DNA of 51,983 bases from Deltaproteobacteria bacterium (GTDB lineage: Bacteria > Desulfobacterota > GWC2-55-46): the NCBI GenBank assembly GCA_016234855.1, contig JACRNO010000063.1, forward strand, positions 1 to 51,983. Direction: 5' to 3'. Positions 10,300-51,051 of the stretch are shown piece by piece. The notes beneath the pieces are model-generated. The model was not told the origin of the DNA. It saw only the letters and a program-made list of their open reading frames with translations, and did not search any database. The first letter of the stretch is position 1. Every line of letters begins with the position of its first letter. Position numbers and translations under genes: made by a program.

Positions 10300-10981
10300 C
10301 GCGAACACCCCGTAATTAAAACGCCGTTGACCTTTCTTCTGAGATTGATTTCAGGCCCCCCATAACATCGGATATCCAAGGAAGGTGTGGTTAATTCTCT
10401 TTTTGTCATTGCGAGGATTATGACCACCGACTAAACCATTCGAGGGCAGCCTCAGCAATGACAGATTTTCCCATACGTCGTGTGCGCTAACGTGTGTCGT
10501 GTGCGCTAACGTTATGTCTTTAGCGCCTTTGGCGCCATTCCCGCATGCTTTTAGCGGGAATCCGATTCCCCGTCAGATACACACGGGGACATGCTTTTGG
10601 GCGCAATGGATTCCCACTGGAGTTTACCATCGCACAAGCGGATCCGGAAATGACGACATAAAACGGCAGCGCCGGTTTTTTCAGCAAACTGCTAAAGAAA
10701 ACCGGTAAAGATGAAGCGCATGAAACCAAAACAATACCGACCCGTCAAGTATATCAGTTTTTATGCTGAAAGGCAGATTCAGGAGACCCTTGTCCCCGAA
10801 TCCGTATTATACAAGGACTTTATCAATAATAGCCGCCCCATCATAAGGCTGCATTCCTGCGGCCGTGGCTTGGTAATTATATTTGCGCCGGAGCAGGTTC
10901 ATTAACCCGCCGCTGACATGGGATAAAACCGTAGCCCGGACCAACCAGTCCTGAGCCGCATCCATAAGTCTAATCACATCC
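10300..10981. other. Intergenic filled with palindromic repeats
   Basis: No gene is supported in this stretch of about 680 bases. It holds a GTCATTGC...GCAATGAC inverted repeat (about 10408-10462), one copy of the 20-mer mini-element (10478-10536), an ATTCCCGC/GCGGGAAT hairpin next to it (10537-10561), and a second ATTCCC-type segment ending near 10690 in TTTTTTCAGCA. The last block is also found near 21600-21690. Confidence 0.6.
10478..10536 (+). repeat. 20-mer modular mini-element, copy A (two units plus cap)
   Basis: Unit 1 (10478-10496) is a 19-base variant. Unit 2 (10497-10516) is TCGTGTGCGCTAACGTTATG. The cap (10517-10536) is TCTTTAGCGCCTTTGGCGCC, itself largely palindromic. The block sits directly against the ATTCCCGC hairpin. 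Related copies are at 22612, 25508 (inverted), 27654 and 50957. Confidence 0.85.
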
Positions 10982-22611: not shown

Positions 22612-22669
22612 TCGTGCGCTAACGTTGTGTCGTGTGCGCTAACGTTATGTCTTTAGCGCCTTTGGCGCC
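22612..22669 (+). repeat. 20-mer modular mini-element, copy B (two units plus cap)
   Basis: Unit 1 (22612-22629) is the 18-base form TCGTGCGCTAACGTTGTG. Unit 2 (22630-22649) is the full 20-base form. The cap (22650-22669) is identical to copy A. It interrupts a repeat that reads CAATCCTC followed directly by CCCC..GGGG elsewhere. Confidence 0.85.
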
Positions 22670-25402: not shown

Positions 25403-25759
25403 GGACCTTTGCATAACCCCGCCTAAGCGCATGGCAATCGGCTTTTAGGGGCTGGATTCCCGCCAAAACTTGCCCTCGAATGTTTCTTTCGGGGGACATG
25501 CGGGAATGGCGCTAAAGGCGCTAAAGACATAACGTTAGCGCACACGACATAACATTAGCGCACACGACATAACATTAGCGCACACGACATAACGTTAACG
25601 CACGAGACAATTTCTCGATCTTTTTATCCGTCATTCCCGATGCGTTACTCCGTCCCCGAATGTCTAAGTCGGGGACTAATACATTCGGGGACGAATCCAA
25701 TCTTTAAGTTATGCGAAGCTCTCATTACTTATGGGATGAAAAACGCCTGCCGCGCTTCC
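25403..25759. other. Intergenic with repeats
   Basis: Holds an ATTCCCGCC/GCGGGAAT pair around 25450-25508, the longest copy of the 20-mer mini-element (25508-25605), and a CCCCGAATGT/ACATTCGGGG inverted repeat whose right part (25671-25703) is shared with 21549-21582. No gene on either strand. Confidence 0.6.
25508..25605 (-). repeat. 20-mer modular mini-element, copy C (four units plus cap, inverted)
   Basis: Read on the minus strand: an 18-base distal unit (25605-25588), three 20-base units (25587-25568, 25567-25548, 25547-25528) and the 20-base cap (25527-25508). The middle two units carry ATT in place of GTT. The order distal short unit, full units, cap, then host ATTCCCGC hairpin is the same as in copy A. 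Confidence 0.9.
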
Positions 25760-27653: not shown

Positions 27654-27682
27654 TCGTGCGCTAACGTTGTGTCTTTGGCGCC
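27654..27682 (+). repeat. 20-mer modular mini-element, copy D (one unit plus shortened cap)
   Basis: One 18-base unit TCGTGCGCTAACGTTGTG (27654-27671) and a cap from which nine bases (AGCGCCTTT) are missing (27672-27682). It has the same host context as copy B: CAATCCTC before it, CCCC..GGGG after it. Confidence 0.8.
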
Positions 27683-31191: not shown

Positions 31192-31636
31192 TTCTCCGAA
31201 CTACTTCTCCCCTTGGCAAGGTACCCACGCCAAGGGGCGCGGGTCGGGCTGGGATGAAGGGTATGCCGCGTGAAGCACGAAACCACCCCTCACCTCAATC
31301 CTCCGCAAGGGGAACGAGGGATTTCTCCTCCCCTTATTTAAGGGGCGGGGCCCCCGTTGCGCCCAGCACCACTTCCGGCTCAAACCTTCGTTGCCTTACG
31401 CATGAGACAAAAGTGGTGCTGGGCAATGCAACGGGGAGTGGGGAGGGGTTAATCCTTGCAACACCGGCGATTGCTTGCTACCTCGCGCGTGCCCCAAATT
31501 AACTCCCCCCCACCCCCTCTTTTACAAAGAGGGGGACTTTCGCGCCTCTTGACAACACAGTTCCTCTCCCCAAAGGGGAGAGGAAGTTTAACCCCTTCTC
31601 CCCTTGGGGAGAAGGTTGGGATGAGGGGGATGAGCG
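31192..31636. other. Repeat-filled gap between archease and rtcB
   Basis: No gene. Contains CCACGCC- and CACCTCAATCCTC-type blocks, the large inverted repeat 31352-31436, a CCCCCTCTTTTACAAAGAGGGGG hairpin, and two nested hairpins CCTCTCCCC/GGGGAGAGG (31563-31583) and CCTTCTCCCC/GGGGAGAAGG (31594-31615) directly before rtcB. The GAGGGGGA after them is the likely rtcB ribosome-binding site. Confidence 0.65.
31352..31436. repeat. Large inverted repeat with about 23-bp arms
   Basis: The left arm 31352-31374 reads CCCCGTTGC then GCCCAGCACCACTT. The right arm 31411-31436 is its complement with a three-base insertion. The CCCCGTTGC/GCAACGGGG part also occurs as a simple hairpin at 43258-43289, so an inner element with AGTGGTGCTGGGC ends appears to have entered that hairpin. 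Confidence 0.75.
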
Positions 31637-37932: not shown

Positions 37933-38628
37933 TTATCTCTTCTTTGCGACCGCCTTCCTGACCTTCTTGACGGCCTTTTTCACGGCCTTCTGCACTGCCT
38001 TCTTCGCGGCCTTCACCGCTGGCTTGCGTTTTGCGACCGCCTTCGCGACCTTCTTCTCGATTTTTTTCACGGCCTTCTTCACGGCGGGCTTACGCTTTGC
38101 AATCGCCTTCGCGACCTTCTCCCCGACCTTCTTCACGGCAGCCTTCACGGCCTTCTTCGCGGCCTTTGCAACCGGCTTACGCTTTGCCATACTCTTTGCC
38201 ACCTCCTTTACAACTGGTTTTAGTTTCTCAACCGGCTTTGGTTTCAACTCGGCCGCCACGTCCAGCCTCACGGCCTCCGCCCACAGGCCGTCGATATCGT
38301 AGTACTCGCGCACGGGCCCGGTGAAGACGTGCGCCACCACGTCGTTGCAGTCAATCAGCGCCCACCTGCCTGAAAGCGCGCCCTCGACGCCGAGCGGACG
38401 CTCGCCGGCGCGCCTCATCACGTCGTCAATCTCGTCGGCCACTGCCTTCAACTGGGGGGCGGACTCGACGGTGCATATCACGAGATAATCGGTAAACGAC
38501 GAAAGCTTCCTGATATTGAGAACGGCCACATCTTCGGCTTGCTTCTCTTCTGCTATGCGCGCGATGAGCAGCGCCTTCTTCCTGGCGTCCAGTATGTTTG
38601 CCTCCCCCGGGTTATTGATGACAGTCAC
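37933..38628 (-). CDS. rsfS: Ribosome silencing factor RsfS with histone H1-like Lys/Ala tail
   Basis: The N-terminal domain (about 14-122) is a complete RsfS/Iojap: IAEEKQAEDVAVLNIRK, FTDYLVICT, GRWALIDCNDVVAHVF, YYDIDGLW. It binds ribosomal protein uL14 and blocks subunit joining in starved cells. Residues about 128-231 are an added tail made of Lys, Ala, Val, Arg and Pro in AKRKPAVKKAVKK-type repeats, very like histone H1 or AlgP tails. Ordinary RsfS ends near residue 120. The tail DNA is continuous with the domain and in frame. The GTG start overlaps the nadD stop as GTGA. The tail may bind rRNA or DNA. Confidence 0.93.
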   Translation of the reverse strand: MTVINNPGEANILDARKKALLIARIAEEKQAEDVAVLNIRKLSSFTDYLVICTVESAPQLKAVADEIDDVMRRAGERPLGVEGALSGRWALIDCNDVVAHVFTGPVREYYDIDGLWAEAVRLDVAAELKPKPVEKLKPVVKEVAKSMAKRKPVAKAAKKAVKAAVKKVGEKVAKAIAKRKPAVKKAVKKIEKKVAKAVAKRKPAVKAAKKAVQKAVKKAVKKVRKAVAKKR

Positions 38629-46068: not shown

Positions 46069-47538
46069 ATGAAAAGAAAATCCCCCCCACCCCCCCTTTT
46101 TCAAAGGGGGGAGTCTGAATCTTCGCTTCCTGCGTCTTTAAAACGAGGGAACTCGACTCCCACCCGTCATCGTCTCTCAAAGGCAGGGGCCTCGGCAAAA
46201 CTTCGCGCCCTCGACAAGGAGTTCGTCTGGCACCCGTTCACCCAGATGCGCGAGTGGGAGACGATGGAAAATGTCATAATAGAATCCGGCGAGGGGAGCT
46301 ATCTGATTGACACCGACGGCAGGCGCTACCTCGACGGCACTGCCTCGCTCTGGACGAACGTCCACGGCCACAGGAAAAAAGAGATAGACGCGGCCATAAA
46401 GGCGCAGATGGACAGAATTAGCCACACGACGCTCCTGGGCCTGGGCAACGTCCCGTCCATTGAGCTTGCCGGGCGGCTTGCGACAGTCACGCCTGCCGGG
46501 CTTACCAAGGTCTTTTATTCCGACGACGGCTCGACCGCGGTCGAGATAGCCCTGAAGCTCGCCTTCCAATACCACGAGCAGACGCGCAAGGCCAATCGCA
46601 AGAGGCGGTTCGTCGCATTCACCGGCGCGTATCACGGCGATACCTTCGGGTCCATGAGCGTGGGTGAAATCGACATATTCGTAAAGAAGTACCGGCCGCT
46701 CCTTTTCAAGGCATTCCGCGCGCCGTACCCTTACTGCTACAGGTGCCCGCTCGACAAAGAGCCGAAAGACTGCGCCATGGCCTGCCTCTACTCATTCGAG
46801 GCCATACTTAAAAAGAACCACCGCGAGATTGCCGCGTGCATCATAGAGCCGCTCCTTGCGGGCGCGGCAGGCATGATAACCTCGCCAAAGGGCTTTTTGA
46901 AAGAGGTTCGCAGCCTCACGCTTAAATACGATGTCCTGCTTATCGCGGACGAGGTGGCAACGGGTTTCGGCAGGACGGGGAGCCTATTCGCCTGCGAGCA
47001 GGAAAACGTAAGCCCGGATATCATCTGCCTTGCAAAGGGCCTGAGCGCCGGGTATCTGCCCCTTGCGGCCACCATTACCACGCGCAAGATTTACGAAGCC
47101 TTCCTCGGCGAATATACAGAGTATAAGAGTTTCTTTCACGGGCATACCTATACCGGAAACCCGCTCGGTTGCGCGGCAGCGATTGCAAATTTGAAACTGT
47201 TCGAGAAAGGACGCGTAATCGAGAGACTGCAACCAAAGATAAAACTATTCGCAGGACTTCTTGAAAGATTCAAAGACCTTCCGGCTGTCGGGGATATCCG
47301 TCATATCGGCATGGCCGCGGGCATCGAGCTTGTATCCGACAGGGCGACAAAAAAACCTTTTGCCCCTGCCATGCGCATCGGACACAGGGTCTGCATGGAG
47401 GCGCGAAAGCGTGGGCTTATCATCCGGCCTCTCGGAGATACGGTCGTAATCATGCCGCCGCTCTCGATTAAAGTTGCGGAGCTTAAAAAGATGACAGGCA
47501 TCATCTATAAGTGCATCGAGCAGGTGACTGAGAACTAA
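46069..47538 (+). CDS. bioA: Adenosylmethionine-8-amino-7-oxononanoate transaminase with repeat-derived N-terminus
   Basis: A PLP enzyme using SAM to aminate KAPA to DAPA. 489 residues from the ATG at 46069; AAGGA stands five bases before, and bioC ends two bases upstream. The conserved protein begins at LRALDKEFVWHPFTQM (about residue 47), followed by YLDGTASLWTNVHGH, the ADEVATGFGRTG segment and Lys in LAKGLSAGY. The first about 40 residues (KRKSPPPPLFQRGES...) are translated from a CCCCCC..TTTTTCAAAGGGGGG palindromic repeat of the kind otherwise intergenic here. No other start codon lies between, so the repeat is part of the protein. Confidence 0.94.
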   Translation: MKRKSPPPPLFQRGESESSLPASLKRGNSTPTRHRLSKAGASAKLRALDKEFVWHPFTQMREWETMENVIIESGEGSYLIDTDGRRYLDGTASLWTNVHGHRKKEIDAAIKAQMDRISHTTLLGLGNVPSIELAGRLATVTPAGLTKVFYSDDGSTAVEIALKLAFQYHEQTRKANRKRRFVAFTGAYHGDTFGSMSVGEIDIFVKKYRPLLFKAFRAPYPYCYRCPLDKEPKDCAMACLYSFEAILKKNHREIAACIIEPLLAGAAGMITSPKGFLKEVRSLTLKYDVLLIADEVATGFGRTGSLFACEQENVSPDIICLAKGLSAGYLPLAATITTRKIYEAFLGEYTEYKSFFHGHTYTGNPLGCAAAIANLKLFEKGRVIERLQPKIKLFAGLLERFKDLPAVGDIRHIGMAAGIELVSDRATKKPFAPAMRIGHRVCMEARKRGLIIRPLGDTVVIMPPLSIKVAELKKMTGIIYKCIEQVTEN

Positions 47539-50597: not shown

Positions 50598-51051
50598 TGT
50601 TAGTCCTCCTCCTGCCTGATGGTCATTAGCTGGTTTTTGTTACAGCGCTCAGTGACGGATACGAAGAAGAAACCACCACCTTTTATTATATCGCAAGACG
50701 TAAGACATAATCCATATAATACATGGGGTTATACGGCTGCTATTCCGGCGGGGCTATAAATATCACACAAAACAGGGCTTGATGTCAATCGGAAAATGAG
50801 ACGGGGCGGAAGAGAGGCGACACGAACAAGGGGCGGTTACCGGCAGACAAATGACGGCCGATGGAAGCTCTGATTAATTAATGATTCGTCATTGCGAGCG
50901 TAGCGAAGCAATCTCGTATCGTAGGCAAATCAGCAGGTTACGAGATTGCTTCGTCGCTTGTGCGCTAACATTGTGCTTTTGGCGCCAACAGCGCTCCTCG
51001 CAAAGACAAAAGGGAATTAATCAGAGCTTCCCTATGTCTGCCGGCGTCTAT
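50598..51051. other. Intergenic upstream of aconitase and the second hicAB
   Basis: No gene. The segment 50888-51011 is a large imperfect palindrome of the GTCATTGCGAG...GAGATTGCTTCGTCGC...CTCGCAAAGAC type, carrying mini-element copy E (50957-50986) near its right stem. The outer sequences (GGAAGCTCTGATTAATTA and AATTAATCAGAGCTTCC) are also complementary, so the whole of about 50865-51031 can fold. Confidence 0.65.
50957..50986 (+). repeat. 20-mer modular mini-element, copy E (one degenerate unit plus short cap)
   Basis: CTTGTGCGCTAACATTGTG (50957-50975) followed by CTTTTGGCGCC (50976-50986). It lies inside the large palindrome, after GAGATTGCTTCGTCG. The most diverged of the five copies. 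Confidence 0.7.

What the first reader, a model, noticed from the sequence alone, without database searches (positions are those of the whole stretch)
25508..25605. A modular mini-element: 1-4 copies of a 20-bp unit plus a 20-bp cap, five times, next to or inside other repeats
Copies at 10478-10536 (2 units), 22612-22669 (2), 25508-25605 (4, inverted), 27654-27682 (1) and 50957-50986 (1). The unit is TCGTGTGCGCTAACGTTATG and the cap is TCTTTAGCGCCTTTGGCGCC. Order is constant: the outermost unit is a 18-19-base variant, full 20-base units come next, the cap is last, and in four copies the cap abuts a host hairpin (ATTCCCGC.. or CCCC..GGGG). At 22.6 and 27.6 kb the same host repeat (CAATCCTC + CCCC..GGGG) is interrupted at the same point. 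Unit number varies like a VNTR while the cap is fixed or internally deleted. There are no unique spacers, so it is not a CRISPR. It could be a very small mobile or slippage-amplified element that targets palindromes.
Basis: seen in the sequence. Interest (0 to 1): 0.78.

Follow-up and report, generated by a model that had tools for sequence, protein, structure and literature searches.

The report
Tiny 29-letter DNA that inserts itself
A 29-base DNA unit has spread to over 100 places in one uncultured bacterium's genome, always landing just after a C, usually inside or beside other hairpin repeats and even inside its own copies; nothing this small is expected to jump so precisely, and the bacterium carries enzymes of a type that could plausibly move it.

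Summary
The sequence is real, but its unit was misread. The repeat is one 29-bp unit, TTGTGCGCTAACGTTRTGTCTTTRGCGCC. Lengths measured without assuming a period peak at 29, 58, 87 and 116 bp. The genome holds about 175 matches; I parsed 184 units at 115 sites. The element was not found in the same-genus genome or 57 other relatives, nor in exact scans of GTDB genomes and IMG/VR, nor in phages or plasmids; one lone two-mismatch hit appeared elsewhere in the phylum. Insertion is exact, with no target duplication beyond 1 bp, and follows a C: of 90 distinct contexts, C^T 66 and C^A 22. Internal insertions use both CT dinucleotides of the unit. Uninserted versions of about 30 sites exist. So it is a very small mobile element, not a VNTR or CRISPR. 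The genome encodes three REP-associated HUH (RAYT) transposases; the congener has none detected. RAYTs are known to cut at CT or CA beside hairpins, so RAYT-driven single-strand transposition is the best mechanism, but inferred: no direct link was shown and no strand bias found.

The parts
25508..25605 (-). Nested element of 98 bp: outer unit head TCGTGCGTTAACGTTATGTC, two extra 20-bp heads, one complete inner 29-mer (GTGTGCGCTAACGTTATGTCTTTAGCGCC), outer 9-bp tail TTTAGCGCC; the tail abuts ATTCCCGC
25517..25545 (-). Complete inner 29-mer of the copy above
10480..10536 (+). Two units, nested: inner 29-mer 10499-10527 inside an outer 28-bp copy (one base deleted), inserted at GTC^TTTGGCGCC; host ATTCCCGC repeat follows
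22612..22669 (+). Two units, nested (58 bp): inner 29-mer 22632-22660 at GTC^TTT of the outer copy; host hairpin CAATCCTC^TCCCC..GGGGAGAGG
27654..27682 (+). Single 29-bp unit in the same host hairpin CAATCCTC^TCCCC..GGGGAGAGG
50958..50986 (+). Single 29-bp unit in host repeat CTTCGTCGC^..GCGCTCCTCGC
46085..46108 (+). Uninserted copy of a host hairpin (CCCCCCTTTTTCAAAGGGGGG), empty-site comparator
31599..31622 (-). Uninserted copy of a host hairpin (ACCTTCTCCCCAAGGGGAGAAGG), empty-site comparator

Best explanation
Shown: a 29-bp non-autonomous element (5'-TTGT-GCGCTAA-CGTTRTGTCT-TTRGCGC-C-3', able to fold as a 7-bp stem with a 10-nt loop) has inserted itself, whole and in one register, at about 115 sites after a C and before T or A. 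It often sits in or beside older palindromic repeats, and it has inserted repeatedly inside its own copies, at their internal CT dinucleotides and at the copy-copy junction. Composite (nested) forms occur in several unrelated hosts, so composites appear to travel as units (or are spread by conversion). Inferred: movement is by single-strand cut-and-join by a HUH Y1 transposase of the RAYT (TnpA_REP) kind. The enzyme would cut 3' of C on both sides of the folded hairpin and release a C-ended strand, linear or a tiny circle whose C^T joint lies in the second, 5-nt loop. It would then join that strand at another C^T or C^A exposed as single strand, for example where hairpin repeats are being replicated. 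Local 20-bp duplication adds some heads.
For: (1) Lengths found without assuming 29 peak at 29 (46 copies), 58 (19), 87 (8), 116 (3). (2) Removing an inner 29-mer restores an outer consensus copy at 37 sites; insertion offsets within the unit are only 7, 9 and 19 (one case at 27), i.e. at its two CT dinucleotides and a derived form. (3) Left base C in 114/115 sites; distinct contexts C^T 66, C^A 22 of 90, against CT and CA near 6% each in the flanks. (4) Exact uninserted counterparts, e.g. L149 'cttaactcccccctgccccctc[29]ttttgcaaagagggggag' against L074 'cttaactccccctgccccctcttttacaaagagggggag'. (5) The same nested architecture lies in five unrelated hosts. (6) Three RAYTs above the NCBIfam equivalog cutoff (NF047646), with HxH and Tyr motifs visible in the translations, in this genome and none detected in the congener that lacks the element. 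(7) TnpA_REP cuts at CT, and one of them also at CA, 5' or 3' of REP hairpins (PMC8266576). (8) Two of the three RAYT genes have a copy just downstream, about 110-150 bp. (9) The stem is more stable than shuffles, z -1.8 to -3.6 for the linear unit. (10) No IS110 or Cas1 gene detected.
Against: No RAYT was shown to act on the unit. The RAYT genes are flanked by other palindromes (GTAGCGCAGGCCTTCAGGCCTGC; GTTCCCAAGCTCCTGCTTGGGAAC; GGGACACTTCCC), which look like their own REPs; the two nearby 29-mers lie in a common host hairpin and may be there by chance. The unit lacks the GTAG tag that the tested RAYTs need. One third of units begin with G, not T, so their 5' junction would be C^G. Adjacent copies agree in orientation in only 22 of 45 pairs, so there is no sign of the strand bias expected of lagging-strand transposition. 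No covariation in the stem. The CT/CA rule rests partly on repeated host families.
Confidence: 0.5

Rival explanations
1. A very small mobile repeat of the SDR type (as in cyanobacteria) moved by an enzyme that is not a RAYT, perhaps a recombinase not looked for here or one lost since.
For: Size, precision, insertion into other repeats and tandem growth match what is reported for SDRs: some 20 bp, tandem in varying number, possibly mobile (PMC2884548); SDR5 inserted precisely between bases 3 and 4 of HIP1 (PMC4390886). The three RAYTs seem to have their own REPs.
Against: The C^T/C^A rule is that of TnpA_REP. No IS110 or Cas1 gene detected; other recombinases were not searched.
Confidence: 0.25
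2. The 29-mer inserted only a few times; host repeats with the insert were then dispersed by other machinery, and gene conversion or template switching among copies mixed the architectures.
For: Copies in one host class share the exact insertion point; each nested type could be a single event; hosts are themselves dispersed repeats.
Against: At least six host classes and a dozen or so one-off sites; nested and tandem insertion at each CT of the unit; uninserted copies with long matching flanks.
Confidence: 0.17
3. A plain VNTR grown by replication slippage (20-bp units, fixed cap).
For: Two extra identical 20-bp heads at 25508-25605; head-to-tail 29-bp arrays such as L065.
Against: Cannot explain dispersed single copies, three different nestings that each add 29 bp, or exact empty sites.
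Confidence: 0.03
4. Pieces of an IS110-type (bridge-RNA) element, which can use CT cores and REP targets.
For: CT at many junctions and palindromic targets fit what is known of some IS110 elements (from memory).
Against: No IS110 transposase detected in the genome; C^A sites have no shared CT; targets are too varied.
Confidence: 0.03

Closest known systems
REP elements and their RAYT/TnpA_REP transposases (REPtrons)
   Same: Short hairpin units, high copy number, intergenic, clustered; C^T (and C^A) junctions equal the known cleavage sites (PMC8266576); RAYTs present; some REPs are reported inside other palindromes (PMC3733652)
   Different: No GTAG or CGTC tag; single head-to-tail units, not inverted pairs, are the inserting entity, whereas REP singlets are thought immobile (PMC3116915); self-nesting; no demonstrated cognate RAYT
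Small dispersed repeats (SDRs) of cyanobacteria (Elhai et al. 2008; original paper not readable here)
   Same: About 20-30 bp, tandem in variable number, precise insertion, often in other repeats
   Different: Different sequence and, as far as found, lineage; target is after C rather than within HIP1; here nesting and a candidate enzyme can be stated
IS200/IS605 elements and their non-autonomous derivatives
   Same: HUH Y1 enzyme class; no target duplication; hairpin units
   Different: No left and right ends; 29 bp in all; no strand bias seen
REPINs
   Same: RAYT-linked small mobile DNA
   Different: REPINs are two inverted REPs; here one unit

Membership tests
REP element | Palindromic unit of about 20-50 nt in high copy, intergenic | tested here: met
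   29 nt, 7-bp stem, about 175 matches; flanking genes in the window are ordinary
REP element | Conserved tetranucleotide (GTAG, or CGTC) at the foot of the hairpin | tested here: not met
   Foot is TTGT or GTGT
REP element | Physical association with a cognate RAYT gene | tested here: inconclusive
   Copies lie about 110-150 bp from two of three RAYTs, but other palindromes flank all three
REP element | Cleavage at CT/CA next to the hairpin by the cognate enzyme | not testable with these tools
   Junctions fit; no biochemistry
REPIN | Two inverted REPs as the mobile unit | tested here: not met
   Units are single or head-to-tail/nested, same orientation
SDR (cyanobacterial) | About 20-bp dispersed unit, precise insertion, tandem growth | tested here: met
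SDR (cyanobacterial) | Sequence relation to a described SDR family | not tested
   Original paper not held; an exact scan of GTDB genome contigs found nothing
IS200/IS605 derivative | Separate left-end and right-end hairpins | tested here: not met
   One hairpin only
IS200/IS605 derivative | No target-site duplication | tested here: met
   Filled and empty sites differ by exactly 29n; at most a 1-bp C is shared
CRISPR array | Repeats with unique spacers, Cas1 | tested here: not met
   No spacers; no Cas1 detected
IS110-mobilised element | IS110 transposase in the genome | tested here: not met

The most novel reading that the evidence does not exclude
A single 29-nt hairpin is by itself a complete mobile substrate: a RAYT or other HUH enzyme excises it as a tiny single-stranded (perhaps circular, dumbbell-shaped) intermediate and pastes it at C^T/C^A, including inside itself. 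It would be among the smallest well-defined transposing DNAs and would explain how SDR-type repeats spread.
Probability: 0.35. Interest if true: 0.85.

Novelty: new variant of a known kind. Interest (0 to 1): 0.68.

Why it matters
How 20-30 bp repeats (SDRs, REP singlets) spread in bacterial genomes is an open question. Here self-nesting and empty sites give base-exact insertion rules and a candidate enzyme, so the question becomes testable with a 29-nt oligonucleotide and three purified proteins. The apparent absence from its congener points to a recent burst within one lineage.

Tried and rejected
Empty orthologous sites in the same-genus genome: genes align at about 74% identity, but the spacers do not align and even the host palindromes are missing there, so no site-by-site test was possible. 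The first greedy parse excised in wrong phases because overlapping matches were skipped; redone with overlapping matches. The shifted-join control (43 sites with a hit at the exact join against 0-11 when shifted by 1-4 bases) comes from that first parse and should be read as approximate. In one search the removed lengths are multiples of 29 by construction; the independent length evidence is. Covariation in the stem: none, family too young. Strand bias: none. dif/Xer-like and attC-like resemblances were considered by eye and dropped: central spacing and core motifs do not fit. IS110 and Cas1: no genes detected.

Full report
What is there. The five window copies are real and far beyond chance. 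They belong to a genome-wide family: about 175 matches with up to 3 mismatches in the 2.3-Mb assembly (174, 178), none for the reversed pattern.

The unit. When the copies were delimited from short tokens without assuming a period, lengths peaked at 29, 58, 87 and 116 bp (46, 19, 8 and 3 copies; 27-30, 38-39, 56-59 and 67-69 account for most of the rest). Simple copies are TTGTGCGCTAACGTTRTGTCTTTRGCGCC; the first base is T in 119 and G in 61 of 183 units. Head-to-tail arrays have period 29 (for example L096: 3, L065: 6 plus a truncated one).

Nesting. A second form has the inner copy after GCGCT(C), and a third has a further copy in that one at GCGC^TAAC. Each adds 29 bp. Recursive excision gave 184 units at 115 sites, 37 of them nested, with inner insertion points at offsets 7, 9 and 19 of the unit plus one at 27. 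The unit has two CT dinucleotides, GCGC^TAAC and GTC^TTT, and both are used; tandem copies use the third, GCC^TTG. (The parser removes 29-mers by construction; one search is the independent evidence on length.)

The target. The base before the insertion is C in 114 of 115 sites. In 90 distinct contexts the junction is C^T 66, C^A 22, C^G 1, A^T 1, against CT and CA near 6% each in the flanks. The hosts are at least six unrelated repeats, mostly palindromic, such as CCCC^TTTTnCAAAGGGG, CTC^TCCCC..GGGGAGAGG, CGTCGC^..GCGCTCCTC, the ATTCCCGC repeat and CCCACGCC^AAGTGGCGTGGG, plus a dozen or so one-off sites. Each common nested architecture occurs in several of them: the type nested at offset 19 in five.

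Empty sites. Thirty of 114 sites have an uninserted counterpart in the fetched DNA, several with 50-60 matching bases around the junction (one of these, L098, matches copies of the element itself, being a nested site). The hairpin CCCCTTTTnCAAAGGGG occurs 16 times without insert. Filled and empty differ by 29n with no target duplication beyond a possible single C.

Distribution. No match in the congener (86% complete) or 57 other relatives; one lone two-mismatch match among 394 other genomes of the phylum, some of them the same relatives, which could be chance; no exact match in GTDB genome contigs or IMG/VR; none in phages or plasmids. The collections may leave out this genome itself. A housekeeping protein places the organism near uncultured groundwater Deltaproteobacteria (69% identity).

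Mechanism. The unit folds as TTGT-(GCGCTAA)-CGTTRTGTCT-(TTRGCGC)-C, z about -1.8 to -3.6 against shuffles. In a circle or tandem, the C^T joint falls in a second loop of five bases. The genome encodes three RAYTs above the NCBIfam equivalog cutoff; the congener has none detected, while about half of the more distant relatives have some Y1 gene without the element, so a Y1 gene alone does not bring the element. TnpA_REP enzymes cut at CT, one also at CA, 5' or 3' of the REP hairpin (PMC8266576). Copies lie about 110 and 150 bp behind two of the three RAYT genes. This is suggestive only: intergenic copies are common, and other palindromes flank these genes. I put RAYT-driven single-strand transposition first, at 0.5, and mobility of the 29-mer as such at about 0.9.

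What speaks against it: no GTAG tag, G-starting units, no orientation bias (22 of 45 adjacent pairs alike) and no covariation, and apparently separate REPs for each RAYT. IS110 and Cas1 routes were tested and not found.

Known kinds. REP singlets are considered immobile remnants of REPINs (PMC3116915), yet here single units insert. REPs within other palindromes have been reported (PMC3733652). Cyanobacterial SDRs are the nearest in behaviour. I therefore call it a new variant of a known kind.

Noticed in passing
G000 contigs C20, C25, C27, C83, C91, C92 (loci L074, L077, L079, L139, L146, L148): Several contigs of the assembly begin or end at or close to the element (e.g. C91 ends and C27 begins at a copy), so copy number and long arrays are probably underestimated.
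   Followed up: partly
L065 (C9:23825-24012): Array of about seven 29-bp units with one truncated unit (GTTGCC) inside a CGTCGC-type host repeat.
   Followed up: no
L162 1465-2136 (C5): Third RAYT-like gene, 223 aa, flanked by inverted AATTAGGGACACTTCCCTATTT repeats, an apparent separate REP system.
   Followed up: no
L144 (C88) and L149 (C93): RAYT genes flanked by GTAGCGCAGGCCTTCAGGCCTGC and GTTCCCAAGCTCCTGCTTGGGAAC palindromes, probably their own REPs; GTAG-type REPs often lie next to the 29-bp element's hosts.
   Followed up: partly
L257 (G299:C30:43480-43503): Single two-mismatch match GCGCCAACGTTCTGTCTTTGGCGC in a distant genome of the phylum; may be chance.
   Followed up: no
window 37962-38166: Tandem 12-bp and 66-bp repeats (CTTCACGGC...), probably coding for a repetitive protein tail.
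   Followed up: no
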